This document shows positions 4,703 to 61,400 of a stretch of DNA of 64,000 bases, piece by piece. The translations under genes were made by a program, and so were the position numbers. The notes beneath the pieces were generated by a model. The model was given only the letters and a program-made list of their open reading frames with translations, did no database searches and was not told the DNA's origin. This DNA comes from Promethearchaeota archaeon (GTDB lineage: Archaea; Asgardarchaeota; Lokiarchaeia; Sigyniarchaeales; SOKP01), in NCBI GenBank assembly GCA_008080735.1, contig SHMW01000010.1:24976-88975 (forward strand), in the 5' to 3' direction. Each line of letters opens with the position of its first letter. Positions within the stretch are counted from its first letter, which is position 1.

Positions 4703-5863
4703 TTACTCACTCTTAAAATATTTTTTGTAGATTAGGTAAAAAAGCAGACCGATAATAAATCCTATGGTGATATTGAGAAAAAAACATCCTAAAGCTGAGA
4801 TGATAATTAGGGGAATGGTTTTCCAATCCTCAATCTTTTTTAGGGCTACTTTTCCTAATGTAAATGAGGTAAAAATTAGCATCGCGCCTAAAATTCCTTC
4901 AGGAAAATAAATAAATATGGTAAATAATAAATCTGAGAAAAAGAGTCCCAACACTAATTCAATAGTGCCTTCGAAAATCATTGAGCCCCCCGTTCTCGCA
5001 CCGAAAGCATATTGTGCTGCCAATCCCCCAGATCCATGACATAATGGCATTCCTCCGAAGAATGGACTTACAAGATTAATCACTCCCATATTGGAGGCCA
5101 AGTTATTAGAATTAATATCACTTTTCACTTCTGGAAATAATTCTTTTATTAATGCAATCGTAGCGATCATAACATTGGTTAGCGTGAGTATTAATTGACC
5201 GATTCCGGCTACTAAAAACCCAATAATAATGTTTTCTATCGTTGGTAAATGAAATGGGATGTGAGGGATATTAAAGGCTAAGACATCTATGGTTAGTATC
5301 CCCGAGAAAATCATAATGCATACCCCTAGAATCACTAAAAATATTGCTGTAGGGACTTTCTCCCAGCGAATGAATAGAATAATGATGATAAGAGCGATTG
5401 TTCCTATGATATAATCATTTATAAATAAGAGTAGAGCAGACCAGCCTAAAATAAAAGATAATCCAAGTTGAATTCCCCGTACAGATAATTTTGGGACTTT
5501 TTTAGTAATTTTATCAAGAATCTTGGTAGCTCCAAGAATGAACCAGACAATTCCCGTGGAAAATCCTGTAGAAATAACTTTGTTTGGAGTCCATTTTTGA
5601 GAAAGTGCGATTGTACCAATCGTTTTTTGTGGTTGGACGGGTAATGGGAGATTATAACGTATCCCTAATACTATATTGGTTAACCCTAAACATAAGAAAA
5701 TGCCAGCGGGGTTTAACTTAACTAACGAAACATACCCGATTAAGAACGGGACTAAAGTTCCCCAATCTCCAAATGCCCCACTTAGCTCGTTTAATGAAAA
5801 TTTTCTCGCTGCTTTTTCTTTGAAATTTTCGATTTCAGAAATATATCTCACCTCGATTATCAA
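4703..5863 (-). CDS. MOT1-type molybdate/sulfate transporter
   Basis: A hydrophobic protein of up to 386 residues with about ten membrane segments. The N-terminal motif F-S-L-N-E-L-S-G-A-F-G-D-W-G-T-L-V-P-F is characteristic of the MFS_MOT1 family, and a second family motif (S-P-F-F-G-G-M-P-L-C-H-G-S-G-G-L-A-A-Q) lies around residue 265. The family takes up molybdate or sulfate across the cytoplasmic membrane. The start is uncertain: TTG 5863 gives the longest form and GTG 5851 is the alternative; no ATG precedes the conserved region. No molybdenum-cofactor gene is adjacent. Confidence 0.88.
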   Translation of the reverse strand: MIIEVRYISEIENFKEKAARKFSLNELSGAFGDWGTLVPFLIGYVSLVKLNPAGIFLCLGLTNIVLGIRYNLPLPVQPQKTIGTIALSQKWTPNKVISTGFSTGIVWFILGATKILDKITKKVPKLSVRGIQLGLSFILGWSALLLFINDYIIGTIALIIIILFIRWEKVPTAIFLVILGVCIMIFSGILTIDVLAFNIPHIPFHLPTIENIIIGFLVAGIGQLILTLTNVMIATIALIKELFPEVKSDINSNNLASNMGVINLVSPFFGGMPLCHGSGGLAAQYAFGARTGGSMIFEGTIELVLGLFFSDLLFTIFIYFPEGILGAMLIFTSFTLGKVALKKIEDWKTIPLIIISALGCFFLNITIGFIIGLLFYLIYKKYFKSE

Positions 5864-7256: not shown

Positions 7257-7415
7257 TCATAAACTCTCATATAATTCTGATGGTTTCCCACCGCACCCAA
7301 AGGTAAAAGACAAAAATTTTCTCTTTTTTTCACACTGGGGGCAGTAATAATTTCCCGATTCCTCTTTATCATCAAATGTAAATCCACATTCTTCGCAGAT
7401 CACATAGCTTTTCAT
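7257..7415 (-). CDS. Mini zinc-ribbon protein
   Basis: A 52-residue protein. An N-terminal C-E-E-C-G and a C-P-Q-C nineteen residues later form a four-cysteine zinc-ribbon or rubredoxin-like site with Y-Y before the second pair. An additional G-C-G-G sits near the C-terminus. It resembles the neighbouring 7573-7704 protein and the UGA-containing 10077-10193 protein, so the three look like local paralogues. Such ribbons bind Zn or Fe; partner and role are unknown. The frame happens to stay open for 24 codons after its TGA stop, but no SECIS-like hairpin follows, so TGA is taken as a true stop. Confidence 0.7.
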   Translation of the reverse strand: MKSYVICEECGFTFDDKEESGNYYCPQCEKKRKFLSFTFGCGGKPSELYESL

Positions 7416-7572
7416 ATCCAATTTATGCTAAATAGATTATTAAAAACCAGAGGTTATAATCCCTTAATAATTGGAATGACCTTGAGATAATAGATAATAA
7501 AAAATTCATATTATACTATTTTCTAAAAATTGAGAAATAAAAAGTGTTAGGACAAAATCCGTGAGAATTGAG

Positions 7573-7704
7573 TTAGGATTCTGATTCTTTTTCAGACTCC
7601 ATCTTAAAGAATTCGGTGTATTTCCCACAATTAGCGCAGTAATACTTTCCTGGTTCATCTTCATCATCGATCGCGGTTCCGCATGATCTACAAATAACAG
7701 TCAT
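7573..7704 (-). CDS. Mini zinc-ribbon protein
   Basis: A 43-residue protein: M-T-V-I-C-R-S-C-G, an acidic turn, then Y-Y-C-A-N-C-G-K and an acidic/serine tail ending in TAA. The paired CxxC knuckles predict one Zn(Cys)4 site. It aligns along its length with the Sec-containing mini protein at 10077-10193 (C-x-x-C-G … Y-x-C-x-x-C/U-x-K), which makes it the cysteine counterpart in the same locus. No membrane segment. The function is unknown; a redox or iron-binding role as in rubredoxins is possible but unproven. Confidence 0.75.
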   Translation of the reverse strand: MTVICRSCGTAIDDEDEPGKYYCANCGKYTEFFKMESEKESES

Positions 7705-8401: not shown

Positions 8402-8526
8402 TTTTTCATGATTATAAAACTATAAAATATTATTTAAGTAAAAAATGTATGATTTTGATAATAAATTTTTTCTCAACATTAATCATCGAACTATTAAGAG
8501 AGGATATGAAATAAAAAATGAAAGGG

Positions 8527-8533
8527 TTCCCAT
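8527..8533 (-). promoter_or_regulatory. 3' arm of the lower stem of SECIS-like element 1
   Basis: On the minus strand this reads AUGGGAA and pairs perfectly (7 bp) with UUCCCAU at 8590-8596, just after the stop codon of the UGA-containing gene. It closes a lower helix beneath the AUGA/UGAC core, with about 5 unpaired bases on the 5' side and about 15 on the 3' side. Confidence 0.5.
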
Positions 8534-8548
8534 AACCCGCGCGAGGCA

Positions 8549-8584
8549 GTCATCAAATGTCTCATTTTTTTACATTTGACTCAT
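8549..8584 (-). promoter_or_regulatory. SECIS-like hairpin 1 (3' UTR of peroxiredoxin-like selenoprotein)
   Basis: Read on the minus strand: AUGAG, an 8-base arm UCAAAUGU, an 11-base loop starting with seven A residues, the perfectly complementary arm ACAUUUGA, then UGAC. It starts 15 bases after the stop codon at 8600. AUGA opposite UGA is the tandem G·A kink-turn core of eukaryotic SECIS elements, and adenines on the 5' side of the apical loop are also typical. The same layout follows the two other UGA-containing genes nearby. Confidence 0.8.
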
Positions 8585-8599
8585 CCAAAATGGGAAATT

Positions 8600-9091
8600 T
8601 TAACAATATTGTTTAATTGCGTTGAGAATAGTCTCGATATCTGGTCTGTCCGTCTTAGTTTCAGCAATATATTTCCACATAATTTTTCCCGAGTTGTTAA
8701 TTAAAAATTTAGACGGTATAGCTTGCTTAGATTTAATATTTGTTTCTGCTATATTTTCATATATCTCAATATCGAATTTTTCTGCAATTTCTGCGTTCTT
8801 ATCTGAGATTTGTGAAAAATGTAGGTTGTTCTGCTCTTGATATTCCCGCATATGGTTTTCACTGTCCGATGATATTGAAATAAGTTTAACATTGTATTTT
8901 CGGATTTTTTCTAGGTTCTTATTTAAGAGAATAGAATGCTGTTTTCAATGACCTCACCAAGTCCCTCGGAAGAAATCGATAAGTAATCAACTATAATTAT
9001 CTATTATCTCTGATAAATCAATTATATTTCCGAGAATGTCTGTAATCTTAAAGTATGGTGCGTTTTTTCCAACCATAAGTCCTTCATTCAT
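8600..9091 (-). CDS. Peroxiredoxin-like selenoprotein with a UxxU motif (three in-frame UGA)
   Basis: A 163-residue AhpC/TSA-type thioredoxin fold. It starts V-G-K-N-A-P-Y-F-K-I-T-D, the usual peroxiredoxin N-terminus, and ends with I-P-S-K-F-L-I-N-N-S-G-K-I, the usual cis-Pro region. In-frame UGA codons occur at 8987-8989 (codon 35), 8954-8956 (46) and 8945-8947 (49). Codons 46 and 49 fall in D-F-F-R-G-T-W-U-G-H-U-K, exactly where family members have CxxC, so both are read as selenocysteine. Codon 35 (Y-S-U-L-L-I-D-F-F) is not at a redox position; it may be a third Sec or a Gly-to-UGA mutation. ATG 9091 follows an in-frame TAA. A conventional gene caller would keep only the part after codon 80. 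Likely role: thiol-dependent peroxide or disulfide reduction. Confidence 0.85.
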
Positions 9092-9307
9092 AATTTAGGC
9101 ACTGTGATTATATTATTGAAGTATAGGTGTTTAAACAATCATCTTAAATGTATTATAAATAATAAATTATGACCAATATCTAAAAACAAATTTATAATGT
9201 TTTTTTATTGTATTTTGAATTGTACATTTTTTTCAGCTTTTCTCCCCAAAAGTATGATCATGCCGAATTTTTAAAAGCTTAAAAAAATAAGAGAAAAGAG
9301 TCTAAAT

Positions 9308-9313
9308 ACCAGA
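9308..9313 (-). promoter_or_regulatory. 3' arm of the lower stem of SECIS-like element 2
   Basis: On the minus strand this reads UCUGGU and pairs with ACCAGA at 9371-9376, immediately after the stop codon. The internal loop below the AUGA/UGAC core has 4 bases on the 5' side and about 16 on the 3' side, nearly the same asymmetry as in element 1. Confidence 0.45.
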
Positions 9314-9329
9314 ACCTGGACAAAAGGTC

Positions 9330-9366
9330 GTCAACAAATGCCTCATTTTTTCTGCATCTGTATCAT
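9330..9366 (-). promoter_or_regulatory. SECIS-like hairpin 2 (3' UTR of UxxC peroxiredoxin-like selenoprotein)
   Basis: On the minus strand: AUGAU, arm ACAGAUGC, a 12-base loop beginning AGAAAAAA, arm GCAUUUGU (seven Watson-Crick pairs and one G·U), then UGAC. It begins 11 bases after the stop. The stem differs in sequence from hairpins 1 and 3 but has the same length and the same flanking AUGA and UGAC, which is the covariation expected of a conserved RNA structure. Confidence 0.8.
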
Positions 9367-9377
9367 TCTCTCTGGTT

Positions 9378-9893
9378 TTATAATTTTTTATCAATTTGCT
9401 CTGTTAGCAACTTGATTGAGGGCCTATCTTCCCTTGTACCAATATATCTCCATGCAATTTTCATTTCCTTTCCAATTAGAAAGGTGGAGGGAATCGCTAA
9501 TTTAGTCTTAAGATAGATTATATCTATGGCGCTTCCAAAGGTATACACATCAAATTTCTTCGCAATCCTCGCTCCTCTGTCAGAAACTAAAGGAAATGTA
9601 TATCCAAACTTACCGGATAATTCTTTTAAATGGTTTTTACTATCACTGGCAATTGCTATAAAGAACACCTTTCGTTTTTGAAATTCAGTTATATTTTTAT
9701 TAATTCTCTCTAAATGTTCTTTGCATGGAACTCAAAATGCGCCTCTAAAGAAATCTAATAGGATACCCCCAGAATCCTTCAAAACTTTTGTAAAATCTAA
9801 AATATTTTCGTTGATATCTACCAGCTGGTCAATAGGGATTTGAGATCCCACTTTTAATCCTTTATCAGAATCTTTATGCTCAATATCATTCAT
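9378..9893 (-). CDS. Peroxiredoxin-like selenoprotein with a UxxC motif
   Basis: A 171-residue AhpC/TSA-like protein homologous to the downstream gene at 8600-9091. A single in-frame UGA at 9732-9734 (codon 54) lies in L-L-D-F-F-R-G-A-F-U-V-P-C-K, so selenocysteine replaces the first cysteine of the CxxC redox motif and Cys57 is retained. The later part (I-A-S-D-S-K-N-H, F-P-L-V-S-D-R-G, I-P-S-T-F-L-I-G) is typical peroxiredoxin sequence. The start is ATG 9893. Conventional annotation would begin after the UGA and lose the active site. The organisation suggests a tandem duplication of a thiol peroxidase or disulfide reductase. Confidence 0.87.
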
Positions 9894-10010
9894 ACAAAAA
9901 GAGATCATGTGGAATGATTTATTTATTCCTTTTTTAAAAAATAACTTAATTATATTGACAGTGATCAGGAAGATAATTCTTATATATTGATGAGAAACCC
10001 TTGCAAGGTG

Positions 10011-10046
10011 GTCAACATAAATCTATAATTTGTATTTATGTCTCAT
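10011..10046 (-). promoter_or_regulatory. SECIS-like hairpin 3 (3' UTR of mini zinc-ribbon selenoprotein)
   Basis: On the minus strand: AUGAG, arm ACAUAAAU, an 11-base loop ACAAAUUAUAG, arm AUUUAUGU (perfect 8 bp), then UGAC. It starts 30 bases after the stop of the 38-residue gene. It shares only the framework with hairpins 1 and 2, not the stem sequence. I did not find an equally clear lower stem here. Confidence 0.75.
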
Positions 10047-10076
10047 TCCGTTAAAATGCACAGTATATAGTTTTTA

Positions 10077-10193
10077 TCATTTGAAGCTAAAGACCATAAA
10101 ATATTGGATTGATTTTCACAAAGGGCAATAATGATAACCGTTGGTCTTCTTATCCAAATGTAATATTTTTCCGCATTTTTGACAAATTATCAT
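10077..10193 (-). CDS. 38-residue zinc-ribbon selenoprotein (CxxC…CxxU)
   Basis: ATG 10193 opens M-I-I-C-Q-K-C-G-K, followed by Y-H-Y-C-P-L-U-K-S and a short hydrophobic tail ending in TGA TAA. The UGA at 10116-10118 (codon 26) takes the place of the fourth metal-binding cysteine of a rubredoxin/zinc-ribbon fold. The cysteine paralogues at 7257-7415 and 7573-7704 have Cys there. Read conventionally it would be a meaningless 25-residue peptide. The SECIS-like hairpin at 10011-10046 supports recoding. A Sec in a four-ligand site points to redox chemistry or an unusual metal centre. Function is otherwise unknown. Confidence 0.78.
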
Positions 10194-10338
10194 ATATTCT
10201 CTAAGAGTGTAAGCTTTTATTCTAAATTAAAAATAAGTTCTATATTTTAAAATATCGATAATTTTATTATCCAAAATAAATAAATGTTGATTAATCCAAA
10301 TTTTTTTCGAAAATATAACTAGAATCTTCTTGATCAAA

Positions 10339-11382
10339 ATGGAATTTGTCCGATATAATGAAGAGAAATATACAGTTGAAAAAGGATTCTTAGATTTAGG
10401 TCTGTTAGGTATAAAAAACTTACGAGAAGTCAAAGGACTAAACAAATTAAAAGATATTTACCACTTGGAATTGAGCTCTAATGAAATTTCTTGTATTGAT
10501 GGTTTAGAGGAACTCACCTCATTAGAAGTTTTAAACTTAGGGAGCAATTCGATCCTAGAAATATCAGGATTAGAGAGTTTAGAAAATTTGGAAGTATTGC
10601 ATCTAATTAGTAATCAGATCGCAGAAATTAAAGGATTAGAAAATCTAAGAAATCTAAAAGAACTCTATTTGCGAGGAAATCAAATTAAGAAAATAATGGG
10701 ATTAGAAAGTCTAAATAAATTGGAAAAATTAGACCTTTCTTGGAATCTTATCAAATCGATAGAAGGATTAGAAAATTTACAGAATTTACAAGTCCTCTGG
10801 ATAGCAGGAAATATAGTCACTCAAATTTCTGGATTAGAACATTTGAGTTCTTTGAAAATCTTAAATTTAGCGGGAAATCAAATACAAAAAATAACGAGTT
10901 TGGATAATCTGGAAGAAATAGAAGAGCTTTATCTAAATAACAATCGGATAAAAAAAATTGAAGGTATGGGGACTCTGAAAAACCTTGAATCACTATGGCT
11001 AAATGGAAATAAAATAAGCAAGATTGAAGGATTGGATAATCTTTCAAATCTAAAACTGTTAAATCTTAAAGAAAACAACTTACCAAGAATTACTGGGTTA
11101 TTAAAACAAAAAAATTTGAAAGAACTTTATTTATCTGGAAATGAGATAGGACATATTTCCGGACTTGAAACTTTAACTAATTTAGAAACGCTCGATCTAA
11201 ACGATAACAATATAAAGAAAATTAATGGCTTAGAAGCTCTAATGAATTTAAATTCCTTATGGATTAAAGGGAACCAACTACCTGAAGATGTATTAGAAAA
11301 ATTAGGGGGCATAGATTCGTCTGGATTTGCGAATGATCCTATTAAATTTGTAGAATATTGTCTAATCAATATTTCCCAATAA
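10339..11382 (+). CDS. Leucine-rich repeat protein, SDS22 type
   Basis: About 347 residues made almost wholly of roughly thirteen 22-residue repeats of the form G-L-E-x-L-x-N-L-x-x-L-x-L-x-x-N-x-I-x-x-I, the SDS22-like class common in Asgard genomes. There is no signal peptide or membrane segment, so it is probably a cytosolic protein-interaction scaffold. A short cap precedes the repeats and a 30-residue cap follows. ATG 10339 is preferred to a TTG three codons upstream. It is divergent from the selenoprotein island. Partner unknown. Confidence 0.9.
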   Translation: MEFVRYNEEKYTVEKGFLDLGLLGIKNLREVKGLNKLKDIYHLELSSNEISCIDGLEELTSLEVLNLGSNSILEISGLESLENLEVLHLISNQIAEIKGLENLRNLKELYLRGNQIKKIMGLESLNKLEKLDLSWNLIKSIEGLENLQNLQVLWIAGNIVTQISGLEHLSSLKILNLAGNQIQKITSLDNLEEIEELYLNNNRIKKIEGMGTLKNLESLWLNGNKISKIEGLDNLSNLKLLNLKENNLPRITGLLKQKNLKELYLSGNEIGHISGLETLTNLETLDLNDNNIKKINGLEALMNLNSLWIKGNQLPEDVLEKLGGIDSSGFANDPIKFVEYCLINISQ

Positions 11383-11413: not shown

Positions 11414-12691
11414 TTATTTATCTCTTTCTTCTTGGATCTCTTCTAAAGTTTGTCCTTTAGTTTCATAAGGTTTTAGGAGTAGAGTAAATAGAGGAACAAT
11501 CATTAATAAGCCCGGAACTATCCAAAATATATTCATTTGAGGATTCAGTATGAACAAAGCTGAAGCACTTAATGGAGCGATAACATAAGAAATTCGAGCC
11601 CCAGTTGCAGCTATTCCTGTCGCCGTGGATCTTATCTCTGTTCTATAAACTTCTGCGAAATAAACCATTATCCAAGTAAACACTACGGGCATAAATAAAT
11701 AACACATCCAGAAAGCCAGAAAATGTCCAATTGTTCCCATTAAGATAAAGCCTGTAATTGAACCAACACACCCAATAATTAAGGTAGCTTTCCTTGATAC
11801 TTTATCCATTAAAACTCCTGAAATTAATGCTCCTACTAAAATCAACAGCCCCCCCACCAATAAAATGGTTTTCCATTCTAACGGCATGGTAGTATTAACC
11901 TTTGTATAGTATGTCTCACCCCAGCTTGTACCGAATTTAAATGCAATTGCCCAGATTCCATAAACAATTGTAGAAATCACGATATAAAGCCCATCCCTTC
12001 TTGTAAGAGATTTAAGAGCTCTTTTAATCTTCATAAGTTCATGACCCCTATCTTCCTTACTCTGAGACCATCTTTTTGGTTCTTTCATGAAATACCACAT
12101 GACCAGTAATCCCAGCATAAAAAAGAAGAAGACACCGTATGTCCATCTCCAACCCAAAGCTGCTTCAATATCTTCTCCAATAAGTGCATAAAGCGGAATT
12201 AAACTGATCAGAGTTGCGATACCACCTAATAAACCACGCTTTTTAGGATTAGCTTCTTCGGATACAGGTATCTCCCACATATTAGAGAGAGTCCCAGTAA
12301 TAACGATTGCATATAAGATATAAAATATCAGCAAATTTATAGCAATAAGAGGCAACAACAGCGAGGGAATACCCATCACTATTAACAACAATAATATCCC
12401 CTTTTTTCTTCCAAATGCATCCGAAAACCATGCAATGAGAAAAACTGAGAATGTTATAATTCCAAAGATCCCTTGCCAAAAGGCAAATTCAGCCTCTGTT
12501 ATTCCGAACTCATCTATTATACCAGCAATCGCAACGGCTTCCATTAAGTTTAAATTATTATCCATAAGTCCAACTAATCCCATAAAAATAACGATGTACC
12601 ATTGATATTTGCTCGAACGTTGAAATTCTTTGTCTTTTTGTTCCATCTCTTTTTTCTTTGCTAAAGCATCAATTTTTCCAATTTCAGACAT
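11414..12691 (-). CDS. MFS transporter (paralogue A of tandem pair)
   Basis: 425 residues with twelve predicted membrane helices. The loop D-A-F-G-R-K-K-G after helix 2 and the matching A-E-V-Y-R-T-E-I-R-S-T-A loop in the second half are sugar-porter-like MFS signatures. It starts with the charged segment I-D-A-L-A-K-K-K-E and ends K-P-Y-E-T-K-G-Q-T-L-E-E-I, both shared with the next gene upstream. The substrate is not evident; a sugar or organic acid is likely. A TATA-like element lies 52 bases upstream of the ATG. Confidence 0.88.
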   Translation of the reverse strand: MSEIGKIDALAKKKEMEQKDKEFQRSSKYQWYIVIFMGLVGLMDNNLNLMEAVAIAGIIDEFGITEAEFAFWQGIFGIITFSVFLIAWFSDAFGRKKGILLLLIVMGIPSLLLPLIAINLLIFYILYAIVITGTLSNMWEIPVSEEANPKKRGLLGGIATLISLIPLYALIGEDIEAALGWRWTYGVFFFFMLGLLVMWYFMKEPKRWSQSKEDRGHELMKIKRALKSLTRRDGLYIVISTIVYGIWAIAFKFGTSWGETYYTKVNTTMPLEWKTILLVGGLLILVGALISGVLMDKVSRKATLIIGCVGSITGFILMGTIGHFLAFWMCYLFMPVVFTWIMVYFAEVYRTEIRSTATGIAATGARISYVIAPLSASALFILNPQMNIFWIVPGLLMIVPLFTLLLKPYETKGQTLEEIQEERDK

Positions 12692-12897: not shown

Positions 12898-14178
12898 CTA
12901 TCTATCTCTCTCGATTTCTTCGAGTGATTGACCTTTAGTTTCATAAGGCTTTATCAATAAGGATAGCATCGGTATAAGAATTATTATTCCTGCAACAATC
13001 CATAATGAAAACATACCTGGGTCTAAAGAAAATAATCCAAATGCAATTAAAGGTGCTGTAACGTATGATGATCTTGCTGCTGTGTTTGTAATTCCTACAG
13101 CTGTGGATCTTATTCTAGTTGGGAAGATTTCTCCGAAATAGACCATTATCCATGCTAATACTATTGGCATAAACAAGTAAATCATCCAGAAAAATATAGG
13201 AATTTGGGTTATGCCCAAAAAGAAGAAACCTATCGCTGCACCAATGCAGCCTACTAATAAGGTTCCAATTCTTCCTAATTTATCAAGTAACAATCCACCA
13301 ATACCAGCACCGACCATAGTTAGTAAACCTCCTATTGTTAAATAAGTATCAAATGTATCATCTGAAATTCCCACGATATCCGTATAAAATTCTCCACCCC
13401 AGCTAGTCCCCATTTTGAACGATATTGACCAGAGAGTATATACAATAGCGGATATAAGTACATAAACCCCATCTTTGCGTGTCATTGATTTTATTGCATC
13501 TCTTATTTTTAAATATTTCCCTCCATGATCCTCTTTCCTACTTCGTTTCCATCTTTCAGTCTCATTCATAAAATAAAGAGGAATAAGAAGTATTAAGAAT
13601 AAGAAAAACATTATTCCATATGCCCAATACCATCCAATGGAATTAGCTATTGGTCCAGCAACAAATGCATATATAGGTATTAAGCCTATAAGGAATGTTA
13701 AGCCCCCGTATAATCCACGTTTTTTTGGGGGAGATTCTTCAGTTATAGGAATTTGCCATGCATTTGATTGAGTCGCCATTATTGAAATTCCATACATAGT
13801 CATTACAAAAAAGAAATTCCAAGGAAGCAATCCTATAAAAAGACAAGGAATTGCTAATGTAGCCATAAGTAATAAGATACCTTTTCTTCTACCAAAAGCA
13901 TCAAAGAACCATGCAATAAAGAAAACACTGAATGAGATTATTCCAAAAATTGATTGCCAAAATGCGAATAAATCTTTATTTAACCATGGATAAAAATCTA
14001 TGATCTCCGGTATTATCCTAGATTCAACGAGTGAAATAAAATTGTCCATGTTCCCAACTAAACCCATAAAAATCACTAGAAAAATCATATAGCTACGAGA
14101 TCTTGGTTCAAAAGTTTTTAGTTCTTCTTCTTTTTTTTTTGCTAAAGCATCTAATTTTACCATAGATTCATTTTTCAA
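12898..14178 (-). CDS. MFS transporter (paralogue B of tandem pair)
   Basis: 426 residues, twelve predicted helices, similar throughout to 11414-12691 (for example M-G-L-V-G-x-M-D-N, F-W-Q-x-I-F-G-I-I-x-F-S-V-F and the C-terminal K-P-Y-E-T-K-G-Q-S-L-E-E-I). It has the same D-A-F-G-R-R-K-G loop. The second half has a G-E-I-F-P-T-R-I-R-S-T loop, closer to the classic MFS sugar-porter consensus than paralogue A. ATG 14178 gives the longest form; ATG 14163 (M-V-K-L-D-A-L) is an alternative that matches the paralogue's N-terminus. About 200 AT-rich bases separate the two genes, so each may have its own promoter. Confidence 0.88.
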   Translation of the reverse strand: MKNESMVKLDALAKKKEEELKTFEPRSRSYMIFLVIFMGLVGNMDNFISLVESRIIPEIIDFYPWLNKDLFAFWQSIFGIISFSVFFIAWFFDAFGRRKGILLLMATLAIPCLFIGLLPWNFFFVMTMYGISIMATQSNAWQIPITEESPPKKRGLYGGLTFLIGLIPIYAFVAGPIANSIGWYWAYGIMFFLFLILLIPLYFMNETERWKRSRKEDHGGKYLKIRDAIKSMTRKDGVYVLISAIVYTLWSISFKMGTSWGGEFYTDIVGISDDTFDTYLTIGGLLTMVGAGIGGLLLDKLGRIGTLLVGCIGAAIGFFFLGITQIPIFFWMIYLFMPIVLAWIMVYFGEIFPTRIRSTAVGITNTAARSSYVTAPLIAFGLFSLDPGMFSLWIVAGIIILIPMLSLLIKPYETKGQSLEEIERDR

Positions 14179-58468: not shown

Positions 58469-61400
58469 TTACTGATACGAAAATTGAAAGCTTCTGAGAT
58501 AGTTCTCCTTCTTCAAGTTAATTATGGTACTTATGACCTTATTTCTCGGCTCATCTCTACCCACCATCCCAAAGCTCAAGAGATCGGAAAAAAAGAAATA
58601 CTCCTTTTCTTTTTGTATCTCATTAGCCAACTCTATTAGATCTTTTTCTAAATTATCAAGGTCGTCAGAGTCTTTATTTTGGTTAGTCTTTAGCGGATAC
58701 ATCAAAGAGATATTAAAATATTTTTCAACCAGTTTATCAGCTCCCTTAAACACGGATGTATCTCCTTTGAATGAGGTGATGAGGTTCTGGTATCGATCTT
58801 CGAACTCTTTTGTGAATTGAATTTGTTGCTCTTTCAAGTATTCGGAAGGCTGTTGCTCGGCAATTAATGCGATTCGTACATAATCCCCATCAGTTAAATT
58901 GATATGAAAATCATAGTAATTCATTTCAAACCCTTTTGCTTGTTTGGATAAGCCGTTCTTCTTAAATTCTCGCTTAAATGACGAAATTGCGTGTAAAAAT
59001 CCGCTTATTAGGTCTGGGTCTAACTTCTCAGAGGATATTTGCTGACTGTATATGGCGACACCAACCTCCTTATGAATGATCATAATATAGGAAAGTTTGA
59101 GGAGATCTTCAAGAATCATCGCATCCGTTTTCCATTTTTCTCTCAATCGCTCCATTTTTCTATGTCTAAGTACCATATACCCTGAGATACCTAAAATGAT
59201 CGCGATAAAGAGCGGGCTTAACATTATCATTGTGTCTAGAAATAATGTAACGCCATTTATCACTCTAAATTTCGTTGATGATGATTCCGATACTGCATAG
59301 ACATTTTCTTCGGCACATTGTACCCGTATGTAATATCCTCTTCCAGTTTCCTTCAAATCCAAATTGACTGAGGCTATCCCGTTCTCATCGGTTATGACGG
59401 GAAATTGATCTACAACTTGATCACTTGGATTCATCACTTGAAAATAAATCTTCAAATTAGTTATGGCCGTCCCGTTATCACCAGTCACATTCACGGAAAA
59501 GTATTGATTGCCCGCCATATATTCAGACGCAAATCCCGAAAGAAATTCTATTGTTGGTTTAATTTTATAGATTTCATAGGTTCCATTGACATCAAACCGA
59601 ACAAAGGGCCATATGGAAGTAATAACAAATTCATAATAGCCCCCCTCTGCAAAACCATTTTCTATTTCTGATTCCCAAGAACCTTGCTGAAGTCCATAGT
59701 TATTCACTTTCAAGCCATTTACTTCCATACCCAGATATTCGGGAGTGGTATCACCTTCGTCTACTCCAAACCCGATTTTCGAAGTGATGTCCGATGAAAT
59801 TAAATTCCGGATGTATATATATAAACTGACTTCATCTATACTCACATTAAATCCTTCAATTGTATCACTATTATACCTCAATCTCATTCTAAATAGATTA
59901 TCCGCTGATTCATTTAGTAATCTTAAAAATATCCAAGTTAAACTTGTATCAATTTCGGTGATGATTGTTTTTTCATTGTTATGTGCATAAGTTTTATTTT
60001 CGCTAATAGGAATCCAAGTATAATTTTCAAAAATTACCTCAAATGGACCTGTATCCATCTCTCCTTTGTAAACTTCTAAAATGGCATGTGTTAAATCTAC
60101 TTGATTTTGAAAACTAGTATTAGAGCTTATCCTAACCTCCATCTTGGGTAAATAAGGGTAAGGATACTTTACTAACCAATCGTAGAAATTAACATCCCAG
60201 AGGGAATTATTAAATTCATTTAAAATATTAAAATTAAATTCTGCTGTTAAATTATTCGAATCTGCTTGTAAATTCAAATATTCATTATCATTTTCGAAAA
60301 TTGTTGATAATTCATAATTCCCTTGGCCCTTATTTGTATCATTTTCAACTATTAGCTTATTTGGGTGCTCCAAATTCTCAATGAGAGGATCATATTTTTG
60401 AATTTCTGTTAGAGAGTCTATTTCACCAATTTCAATAGTAAGTTTATCAATGCTAACATTAAAGCTTCCATTCCCATTACCAGTATATTCAAACATGAAT
60501 CTTAAATTATTGTTATCGTTACTATTAATCCATTTAAGGAATTCAATTTTTTCATTTGGATCTCTTATTTCATAAGTCATGAGCTCTGAATTGTTGTTTT
60601 TTAAGTTAAAAAAATGAGAAATGTTTTGCCATCCAACTATAAAAGGTTGTTCAAAATTCCAAGCATATAGAGTTCCATCCTCAATATTTTCAGGGTGAGA
60701 TACATTTAGAGCTAGAGAAATTTCAATCTTAAAGAGTTTCGTATAGTGATTCAAATACCAATCTATCAATCCAAAAAAACCAAGAAATCCAAGAGCTTCA
60801 TCATATAAATCATGATAAGTACCTTCATAATTACGCAGATCCTCTAAATTGAAATCAGTAATAAATTTGACGTTATTAGACTCATTAGCAACAATATATT
60901 CATTTCCATCCATGTGTTCGACAAAAGAAGTCGGGTCTCCATCTTGTAGGGTTCCCTCTTCTTCCGTGGTGTTGACAACATTATTAAGAGTATAATTATC
61001 AAATATGAAATCGGGAGATTGGGCAAATATTTCTCCCTCTCCGATATCATCAGCTGCACCCTCATCAAGATTGAAATAGAGAAATTTTGGACCTCCTCCG
61101 TTATCAGTATCATCAGGTGGTATTTTTACGCGAAATGCAAACCAATATTTATCTATTCCATCCTCAAAAGTATGTTTGGTGTTTGAAATATTTAGAAATA
61201 CGGGACCATAATCAGAGGATTTAAAATCAAAAGTCACCCATTCGGGATAAATCTTGATAGGATGTGGTTTTTGAACCTTTCCCAGGGTTTCATTCGGGTT
61301 GGGCGTTCCAACCTCATCATCCGAACAATTTACAATCGCAACCTCCCACGAATTTTCATCCGTAAAATAAGTCTTATTGTTAATATCCTGAATTAAAATA

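What the first reader, a model, noticed from the sequence alone, without database searches (positions are those of the whole stretch)
8527..10193. Tandem selenoprotein island in an Asgard-like genome
Three consecutive minus-strand genes have UGA codons inside otherwise intact frames. In each, at least one UGA is at a position that is cysteine in homologues (UxxU, UxxC, CxxC…CxxU), and each gene is followed within 11-30 bases by the same type of hairpin. Conventional annotation would truncate or miss all three. Together with cysteine paralogues beside them, this looks like a Sec-based redox module.
Basis: partly seen in the sequence, partly recalled or inferred. Interest (0 to 1): 0.93.

Follow-up and report, generated by a model that had tools for sequence, protein, structure and literature searches.

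The report
Zinc-ribbon proteins ending in selenocysteine
In a Lokiarchaeal genome three neighbouring genes carry in-frame UGA codons that are predicted to insert selenocysteine; two encode peroxiredoxin-like proteins of a known kind, and the third encodes a tiny zinc-ribbon-like protein of an apparently undescribed family whose last residue is likely selenocysteine, so standard annotation would miss it.

Summary
Two AhpC/TSA-domain genes (Prx-A, UxxU; Prx-B, UxxC) and a 39-residue zinc-ribbon-like gene (ZnR) carry in-frame UGAs; each stop is followed within 11-27 nt by the same element, a eukaryote-like Asgard SECIS (AUGA, stem, A-rich loop, GA). The genome has SepSecS, EFSec, SelD with an in-frame UGA, a PSTK-like gene and a tRNA-Sec split by two apparent introns. 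Sec-containing Prx-like proteins are already published for Asgard archaea. ZnR is not in the lists I read. A profile finds it in 27 of 227 Asgard genomes, all of one family; in 25 the frame ends Lys-UGA, followed at once by UAA or UAG, with a SECIS downstream; in the other 2 it ends Lys-Cys-UAA, without one. In 8 of 21 neighbourhoods opposite-strand genes flank ZnR closely on both sides, leaving the terminal UGA as the one credible client of that SECIS. I read the family as selenoproteins whose last residue is Sec; the window copy has a second UGA in place of a metal-ligand cysteine. All evidence is sequence-based; Sec insertion, metal binding and redox role are untested.

The parts
10074..10193 (-). 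ZnR: 39-residue zinc-ribbon-like frame MIIC..C...YHYCPLU...FKU, then UAA
   Evidence: translation; profile family A1. AlphaFold model with three strands and a tail, pLDDT 81, pTM 0.49.
10077..10079 (-). Terminal UGA (codon 39), predicted C-terminal Sec, directly followed by UAA
   Evidence: UGA in 25 of 27 family members, Cys codon UGU in 2; next codon UAA or UAG in 25 of 25.
10116..10118 (-). UGA codon 26, in place of the fourth metal-ligand Cys (CxxU); predicted Sec, seen in this assembly only
   Evidence: Cys in the other 26 members; only G000 has an inner UGA.
10012..10046 (-). SECIS core of ZnR (AUGA to GA); model match 9974-10060
   Evidence: (58.9 bits), covariation in 24 ZnR elements.
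9378..9908 (-). Prx-B: AhpC/TSA-domain protein, 176 residues, UxxC (UGA at codon 59, 9732-9734)
   Evidence: (68.8 bits).
9331..9366 (-). SECIS core of Prx-B; model match 9291-9379
   Evidence: (55.7 bits).
8600..9091 (-). Prx-A: AhpC/TSA-domain protein, 163 residues, UxxU (UGA codons 46, 8954-8956, and 49, 8945-8947) and a further UGA at codon 35 (8987-8989, Gly in relatives)
   Evidence: (81.1 bits).
8550..8584 (-). SECIS core of Prx-A; model match 8512-8598
   Evidence: (72.9 bits).
7573..7704 (-). Cys-type zinc-ribbon paralogue, 43 residues, no inner UGA
   Evidence: matched by the ZnR profile at E 7e-7.
7257..7421 (-). Cys-type zinc-ribbon paralogue, 54 residues, no inner UGA
   Evidence: matched by the ZnR profile at E 1.3e-6.
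10330..11382 (+). Leucine-rich-repeat gene, divergent from ZnR; synteny marker
   Evidence: Divergent LRR gene upstream of ZnR in 16 of 21 neighbourhoods; 17 by clustering.

Best explanation
The three genes are predicted selenoprotein genes of a Lokiarchaeon, each likely decoded with its own SECIS element in the 3' untranslated region, and the smallest belongs to an apparently undescribed family of zinc-ribbon-like proteins whose UGA directly before the stop codon would add a selenocysteine as the last residue. Mechanism: the ribosome reaches UGA; EFSec with Sec-tRNA-Sec, recruited by the downstream AUGA/GA element, would insert Sec; in ZnR the next codon is UAA or UAG, so decoding adds one residue and then ends. 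Prx-A (UxxU) and Prx-B (UxxC) are inferred thiol/selenol peroxidases or oxidoreductases. The C-terminal Sec of ZnR is inferred to be a nucleophile on a short tail after the zinc-ribbon sheet; my preferred but weakly supported role is a small electron donor or partner of the neighbouring Sec-Prx. In the window copy a second UGA replaces the fourth metal-ligand Cys, so Sec may also be a metal ligand there. Shown by sequence: the frames, the motif positions, SECIS and covariation, the machinery genes, the UGA/Cys exchange at the terminus, synteny. Inferred: actual Sec insertion, metal binding, redox role, partner.
For: Machinery in the same assembly: SepSecS 491.5 bits, EFSec/SelB 243.9 bits against a cut-off of 242.25, SelD over cut-off with one in-frame TGA, PSTK-like 178.6 bits (under its cut-off), tRNA-Sec beside SepSecS. 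Family: 27 of 227 Asgard genomes at E <= 1e-9; 25 of 27 end in UGA, and 25 of 25 of these are followed at once by UAA (20) or UAG (5); 2 of 27 end in UGU-Cys + UAA. Background: 42 of 240 mechanical ORFs of >=120 codons end in UGA, and 2 of those 42 are followed by UAA/UAG. SECIS core, one rule for both sets, 150 nt after the stop: 22 of 25 UGA-ended, 0 of 2 Cys-ended, 1 of 232 control ORFs, that one being a Sec-Prx; the three misses are two with a one-base bulge (G044, G032) and one whose element starts at 137 nt (G029). Held-out model test: 10 of 10 UGA-ended ZnR loci hit at the expected place (E <= 1.2e-8), 0 of 2 Cys-ended. Covariation: 18 of 19 pairs change on both sides in 48 elements, 0 of 500 shuffles as high; 8 of 9 stem pairs in 24 ZnR elements alone. 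Context: in 8 of 21 neighbourhoods an opposite-strand gene reaches to 93-142 nt from the ZnR stop. Model R1 also lands beside four FrhD-like genes (one with an HdrA-like gene) and two VhuU-like genes with in-frame UGAs elsewhere in this genome.
Against: No protein, RNA or selenium data. The window's ZnR element has a poor lower stem, and its minimum-energy fold pairs the AUGA core with a downstream CUCAU; the lower stem is paired in only 57% of cells in the 48-element set. UGA 26 of ZnR is seen in this one assembly only, and UGA 35 of Prx-A in no other row of A5, so each could be a sequencing error or a recent mutation. The genome is a MAG (93% complete, 7% contamination). PSTK is under its curated cut-off (as in all 21 genomes searched). 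The 25 UGA-ended members share ancestry, so the counts are not independent, and some held-out loci are close kin of training rows. Two of the 11 SECIS hits in this genome have no clear selenoprotein beside them. Foldseek gave no significant match for the ZnR model (best E 1.2). ZnR adjoins a Sec-Prx in only 5 of 21 neighbourhoods, which weakens the partner idea.
Confidence: 0.88

Rival explanations
1. The terminal UGA of ZnR is an ordinary stop with a back-up stop behind it; in the window the SECIS serves only UGA 26, and in relatives it is a leftover or an unrelated hairpin.
For: UGA is a normal stop in this clade (42 of 240 ORFs), and an unrelated C4 ORF in G018 also ends UGA-UAA without a SECIS (L110).
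Against: The only inner UGA in 27 members is the window's, yet all 25 UGA-ended members have the covarying element; the two Cys-ended members lack it. UGA never becomes UAA/UAG in 25 members while the codon behind it varies. 25 of 25 followed by a stop against 2 of 42.
Confidence: 0.06
2. The in-frame UGAs are sequencing errors or mark decaying pseudogenes.
For: The genome is a MAG; UGA 26 of ZnR is seen only here, and UGA 35 of Prx-A is absent from the other 8 rows of A5.
Against: The redox-motif UGA of Prx is kept in the 60 best rows from many genomes; the terminal UGA in 25 of 27. Codon-position variation is that of coding sequence, also in the last ten codons.
Confidence: 0.02
3. Only some of the UGAs are Sec: the redox-motif and terminal ones are, but ZnR codon 26 and Prx-A codon 35 are errors or newly arisen mutations.
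For: Both are unmatched in the relatives that I aligned; codon 35 is a Gly position.
Against: Codon 26 falls exactly on a Cys codon, as expected for Cys-to-Sec exchange, and its SECIS is intact.
Confidence: 0.3
4. UGA is reassigned genome-wide (for example to Trp), as some gene callers assumed.
For: Five of the eight database homologues that I fetched have Trp at the UGA.
Against: UGA ends 42 of 240 long ORFs in this clade, and the site is Sec-type with a SECIS behind it; Trp there is best read as a gene-caller artefact on short contigs.
Confidence: 0.01
5. Function rival: ZnR is not a Prx partner but a metal or metalloid trap, or a regulator, using the C-terminal selenolate as a ligand, as has been suggested for bacterial SaoC and UXX-star proteins.
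For: ZnR stands apart from a Sec-Prx in 16 of 21 neighbourhoods; the ligand idea for the bacterial proteins is in PMC13188914 (passage).
Against: No metal-resistance gene was looked for or seen in the conserved neighbourhood clusters, which I did not annotate in full.
Confidence: 0.4

Closest known systems
Prx-like selenoprotein of Asgard archaea (prxL; Huang et al. 2024, PMC11227280)
   Same: AhpC/TSA-type domain, Sec, Lokiarchaeia, type I eSECIS-like element in the 3' UTR
   Different: Nothing essential for Prx-B; Prx-A is UxxU with a further UGA at a Gly position. UxxU forms are listed in the 2026 review (PMC13188914, passage) for bacterial Prx-like thiol:disulfide oxidoreductases.
Bacterial selenoproteins with Sec at or near the C-terminus: KCU-star/DUF466 (NF033934), SaoC Cys-Cys-COOH (NF040734), UXX-star (listed in PMC13188914)
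   Same: Sec at or near the end of a small protein
   Different: Other families (no NCBIfam hit of ZnR to them at E <= 0.01). ZnR is archaeal with a 3'-UTR eSECIS-like element and a C4 zinc-ribbon motif.
FmdB-family putative regulatory selenoprotein, UxxU (TIGR02605; listed in PMC13188914)
   Same: Sec replaces Cys in what I recall to be a small zinc-ribbon protein
   Different: ZnR does not hit TIGR02605 at E <= 0.01; its conserved Sec is at the C-terminus, and the zinc-site Sec is seen in the window copy only.
HVO_2753-like small zinc finger proteins and TFIIB/RpoP zinc ribbons
   Same: CxxC...CxxC ribbon pattern; best PDB profile row is such a protein (9fhl_C, E 0.029)
   Different: Matches are weak and none has the Lys-Sec/Cys terminus.

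Membership tests
Selenoprotein gene with Asgard eSECIS-like element | In-frame UGA at a site that is Cys in homologues | tested here: met
   Terminal site: UGU-Cys in 2 of 27; codon 26: Cys in the other 26. Prx-A second site: UxxC in relatives (34 of 50 sequences). The first Prx site is U in all 50 sequences of that census.
Selenoprotein gene with Asgard eSECIS-like element | AUGA / stem / A-rich loop / GA element in the 3' UTR, with covariation | tested here: met
Selenoprotein gene with Asgard eSECIS-like element | Sec machinery in the same genome | tested here: met
   PSTK under its curated cut-off.
Selenoprotein gene with Asgard eSECIS-like element | Sec present in the protein | not testable with these tools
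   Needs mass spectrometry or 75Se labelling.
AhpC/TSA (PF00578) | Pfam gathering score (26 bits) | tested here: met
   81.1 and 68.8 bits.
SelL-related redox protein (NF040769) | Curated cut-off (120 bits) | tested here: not met
   52.2 and 33.6 bits.
Zinc ribbon (C4) | Two Cys pairs (CxxC) in a three-stranded ribbon | tested here: inconclusive
   C4, C7, C23 and C26 invariant in A1 if U counts as C; model with three strands; no Pfam zinc-ribbon family over its cut-off and no significant fold match.
Zinc ribbon (C4) | Bound metal | not testable with these tools
   Needs the purified protein.
KCU-star, SaoC, UXX-star, FmdB selenoprotein families | NCBIfam model match | tested here: not met
   NCBIfam scan of ZnR at E <= 0.01 gives only RpoP and archaeal RpoB, both far under cut-off.

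The most novel reading that the evidence does not exclude
Lokiarchaeia have a class of micro-selenoproteins in which UGA-stop plus a SECIS serves to cap a zinc ribbon with a single C-terminal selenol; in this genome the cap is joined by a Sec metal ligand (a C3U site), and the protein works as the dedicated selenol electron donor of the UxxU/UxxC peroxiredoxins encoded next to it. Because the Sec codon touches the real stop, such proteins are invisible to searches that need coding sequence after UGA, and more of them may wait behind orphan SECIS elements.
Probability: 0.25. Interest if true: 0.87.

Novelty: new variant of a known kind. Interest (0 to 1): 0.74.

Why it matters
It adds what appears to be a new archaeal selenoprotein family in the group closest to eukaryotes, one whose Sec codon is followed directly by a stop. 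It offers a natural test of how UGA is told apart from a stop: the same kind of element would act on UGAs about 30-50 nt upstream (ZnR; about 140 nt in G029) and about 360-400 nt upstream (Prx-A and Prx-B), and natural Cys copies have no element. It also suggests searching Asgard and eukaryotic genomes for UGA-stop pairs before a SECIS.

Tried and rejected
Rejected readings. (1) Genome-wide UGA reassignment: UGA ends 42 of 240 long ORFs. (2) Terminal UGA as ordinary stop: see the 25 of 25 UGA-stop pairs, the SECIS and the Cys forms. (3) SECIS serving another gene: in 8 of 21 neighbourhoods opposite-strand genes flank ZnR on both sides (ORFs of >=100 aa). A check down to 30 aa with UGA read through found on the ZnR strand only frames antisense to the leucine-rich-repeat gene, overlapping ZnR or its element in another frame (48 aa, G002 and G054), or starting at or inside the element antisense to the convergent gene (93 and 103 aa, G061 and G036); I hold these to be chance frames. 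(4) Contaminating contig: 16 of 21 neighbourhoods share the divergent leucine-rich-repeat gene (17 by clustering). (5) The first tRNA-Sec search seemed negative (the four hits are Gly, Cys and two Arg tRNAs); a same-genus tRNA-Sec as DNA query found the gene in two pieces. (6) Folding energy as evidence: not significant. (7) Fold search of the ZnR model: 0 matches with E <= 0.001, 28 with E <= 10, mostly ribosomal entries. (8) NCBIfam scan of ZnR: only weak RNA-polymerase hits; PDB profile search: weak hits only, many to CD8 alpha chains and surely chance, best a small zinc finger protein. (9) A control against over-reading: an unrelated C4 ORF in G018 also ends UGA-UAA but has no SECIS (L110).

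Rows dropped and limits. In the ZnR census I kept matches at E <= 1e-9; 54 weaker rows (E 5e-9 to 7e-4; paralogues of other length and matches inside long proteins) were left out. In one search most genomes had only 33 of their first-look candidates scored; (83 genomes) all were. For the SECIS model I used 48 of the 64 non-redundant elements. In one search, 43 of 48 Prx rows gave a core; the other five: L045 (cut) and the first L078 row (no element-like sequence), L029 with AGGA in place of AUGA, L026 whose frame runs into the element, and L040 which fails my stem rule. One search's core for the G029 ZnR (L044) is a false one; the real element starts 137 nt after the stop. Searches used slightly different rules; one search repeats the test with one rule.

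Papers. PMC11227280: abstract, introduction, methods, results and discussion read, supplementary tables not read. PMC13188914, PMC9723677, PMC5330540: passages only. PMC9622424: search listing and start of abstract only. Mariotti 2016: not held, known to me from recall and from papers that cite it. 'Apparently undescribed' rests on the searches and on these readings.
Full report
What is there. On the minus strand of the window three genes follow one another: ZnR (10193 to 10074), Prx-B (9908 to 9378) and Prx-A (9091 to 8600). Read by table 11 they fall into fragments; with UGA as an amino acid they are whole. Prx-A and Prx-B hit Pfam AhpC-TSA with 81.1 and 68.8 bits, over the cut-off of 26. 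Prx-A reads ...NYSULLIDFFRGTWUGHUKQH..., Prx-B ...LLDFFRGAFUVPCKEH.... ZnR reads MIICQKCGKILHLDKKTNGYHYCPLUKSIQYFMVFSFKU, then UAA.

The window's place. The assembly G000 has 4.15 Mb in 140 contigs, 93% complete and 7% contaminated.

Sec machinery. SepSecS (491.5 bits), EFSec (243.9 bits, cut-off 242.25) and tRNA-Sec lie on one contig, C15. The tRNA-Sec was missed by Rfam and ARAGORN; a same-genus tRNA-Sec found it in two pieces. By eye it has an insert after the UCA anticodon and a second in the T loop, with a 9-bp acceptor stem. A T-arm intron in Lokiarchaeal tRNA-Sec is known (PMC5330540, passage). SelD carries one in-frame TGA. The PSTK-like gene scores 178.6 bits, under the curated 290.5; none of the 21 genomes searched exceeds that cut-off.

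The Prx genes. A search of 147 genomes finds 92 with a match at E <= 0.001; the 60 best rows, down to E 1.2e-14, all have at least one in-frame TGA. Among 50 distinct motif-bearing sequences in my loci 34 are UxxC, 16 UxxU and none CxxC/CxxU; they were collected around the Sec family, so this is no population estimate. Of 23 database homologues I fetched eight: three are pieces that start after the UGA (P0002 is 92% identical) and five are whole proteins with Trp at the UGA, which I take for a gene-caller artefact. Sec-containing Prx-like proteins in Asgard archaea are published (PMC11227280), so these two are known in kind. UGA 35 of Prx-A is at a position that is Gly in the other 8 rows of A5; its meaning is open.

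The SECIS elements. All three have AUGA, an 8- or 9-bp stem, an 11-12-nt loop with an A run, and GA, followed in most of the set by an ACC...GGU hairpin. This fits the type I eSECIS-like form described for Asgard archaea (PMC11227280). In 48 elements 18 of 19 pairs change on both sides and no shuffle of 500 reaches the observed scores; slid controls score 0.10-0.17 against 0.51. The upper stem is paired in 90.5% of cells, the lower stem in 57.3%. The tool warns that shuffles ignore relatedness. In G000 model R1 reports 11 elements: the three here, four beside FrhD-like genes with UGA (one of them also beside an HdrA-like gene with UGA), two beside VhuU-like genes (contigs C102 and C80), and two without a clear selenoprotein. 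These gene names are my reading of the translations. Only 150 of 3452 candidates were scored in that search.

The ZnR family. The window protein found relatives; 18 rows form alignment A1 with M1, C4, C7, G19, Y20, C23, C26, F32, K38 and C39 invariant when U is written as C. The profile finds 27 genomes at E <= 2.7e-13 with a gap to 5e-9 (83 genomes), and in 227 Asgard genomes still only those 27, all of one family, 5 genera (where most genomes had 33 candidates scored). The match stops at profile position 36 in UGA-ended members, so the terminal UGA did not select them. Terminal codons: 25 UGA and 2 UGU; next codon UAA 20 and UAG 5 among the UGA ones. In the 25 members of equal length the Lys codon before it varies (AAA/AAG) and the stop varies, yet the UGA never becomes UAA or UAG. 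Codon positions differ 0.32, 0.26 and 0.49 between pairs, as in a coding gene, also in the last ten codons (0.34, 0.23, 0.53). Only the window copy has an inner UGA.

SECIS of ZnR. With one rule over 150 nt after the stop, 22 of 25 UGA-ended members and 0 of 2 Cys-ended members have the core, against 1 of 232 long-ORF flanks, which is the G011 Prx itself. The three misses are G044 and G032, whose stems have a one-base bulge, and G029, whose element starts at 137 nt. Near the Cys-ended genes the model finds only the SECIS of the Prx gene further down. Ten loci not used in the model all hit, though some are close kin of training rows. The element starts 27-47 nt after the stop in 24 members and at 137 nt in G029, against 1-19 nt in 42 and 58 nt in 1 of 43 Prx rows: I read this as a minimum spacing between Sec codon and SECIS, an inference.

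Gene order. A divergent leucine-rich-repeat gene precedes ZnR in 16 of 21 neighbourhoods, including the Cys-ended G018, so those copies are positional orthologues. In G061, G002, G013, G054, G060, G052, G034 and G036 an opposite-strand gene reaches to 93-142 nt from the ZnR stop; the SECIS core lies in that gap, and ZnR's only UGA there is the terminal one. Shorter frames on that strand look like chance. A Sec-Prx follows ZnR in 5 of 21 (G000, G011, G018, G015, G029).

Structure. AlphaFold2 on five rows gives mean pLDDT 81, pTM 0.49 (the other four models 62-72), strands 2-4, 19-23 and 28-34 and a tail to residue 39: zinc-ribbon-like, with the last residue on a short tail. Foldseek finds nothing significant.

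Known relatives. The 2026 review lists bacterial selenoproteins named for Sec at or near the C-terminus (KCU-star, SaoC Cys-Cys-COOH, UXX-star) and an FmdB-family putative regulatory protein with UxxU (PMC13188914, passages); that FmdB is a small zinc ribbon is recalled. So neither a C-terminal Sec nor Sec in a zinc ribbon is new by itself. The Asgard survey lists seven families, none a zinc ribbon, and searched with known families (PMC11227280), so it could hardly have found this one. New here, as far as my searches show, is the family, its terminal Sec directed by an archaeal eSECIS-like element, and the Sec/Cys exchange together with presence or absence of the element.

Verdict. Selenoprotein reading of the three genes: strong. 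Terminal Sec of the ZnR family: strong by comparison, untested at the bench. UGA 26 of ZnR as Sec: likely, one assembly. Function: open, with the Prx-partner idea as my first guess and a metal-ligand role close behind.

Noticed in passing
G000:C15 about 60230-60370, minus (L109 about 5225-5375): tRNA-Sec gene with two apparent introns, one after the anticodon and one in the T loop; same-genus G001, G002 and G003 have tRNA-Sec genes that ARAGORN reads whole. A T-arm intron is known for Lokiarchaeota; the second one I have not seen described.
   Followed up: partly
L204 (G000:C102:10368-10450) and L206 (G000:C12:31748-31836): Two SECIS-like hits without a recognised selenoprotein: before the first a short frame reads ...GEPSGUACITF...; the second follows a 288-residue frame without UGA. 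Possible further families or false hits.
   Followed up: partly
window 8987-8989: UGA codon 35 of Prx-A at a position that is Gly in the other 8 rows of A5; a Sec at a non-Cys site, a mutation or an error.
   Followed up: partly
ZnR and Prx 3' ends in relatives: The SECIS starts 27-47 nt (once 137) after the stop in ZnR genes but 1-19 nt (once 58) in Prx genes: a hint of a minimum UGA-SECIS spacing.
   Followed up: partly
P0001, P0004, P0005, P0009, P0012: Database homologues of Prx-B carry Trp at the UGA, probably from gene callers using a UGA=Trp code on short contigs.
   Followed up: no
L029 (G063 Prx): The Prx element has AGGA in place of AUGA in the core, with the rest of the element kept.
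   Followed up: no
window 11414-12691 and 12898-14178, minus: Two adjacent, similar membrane-transporter-like frames of 425 and 426 residues, a tandem duplication by eye.
   Followed up: no
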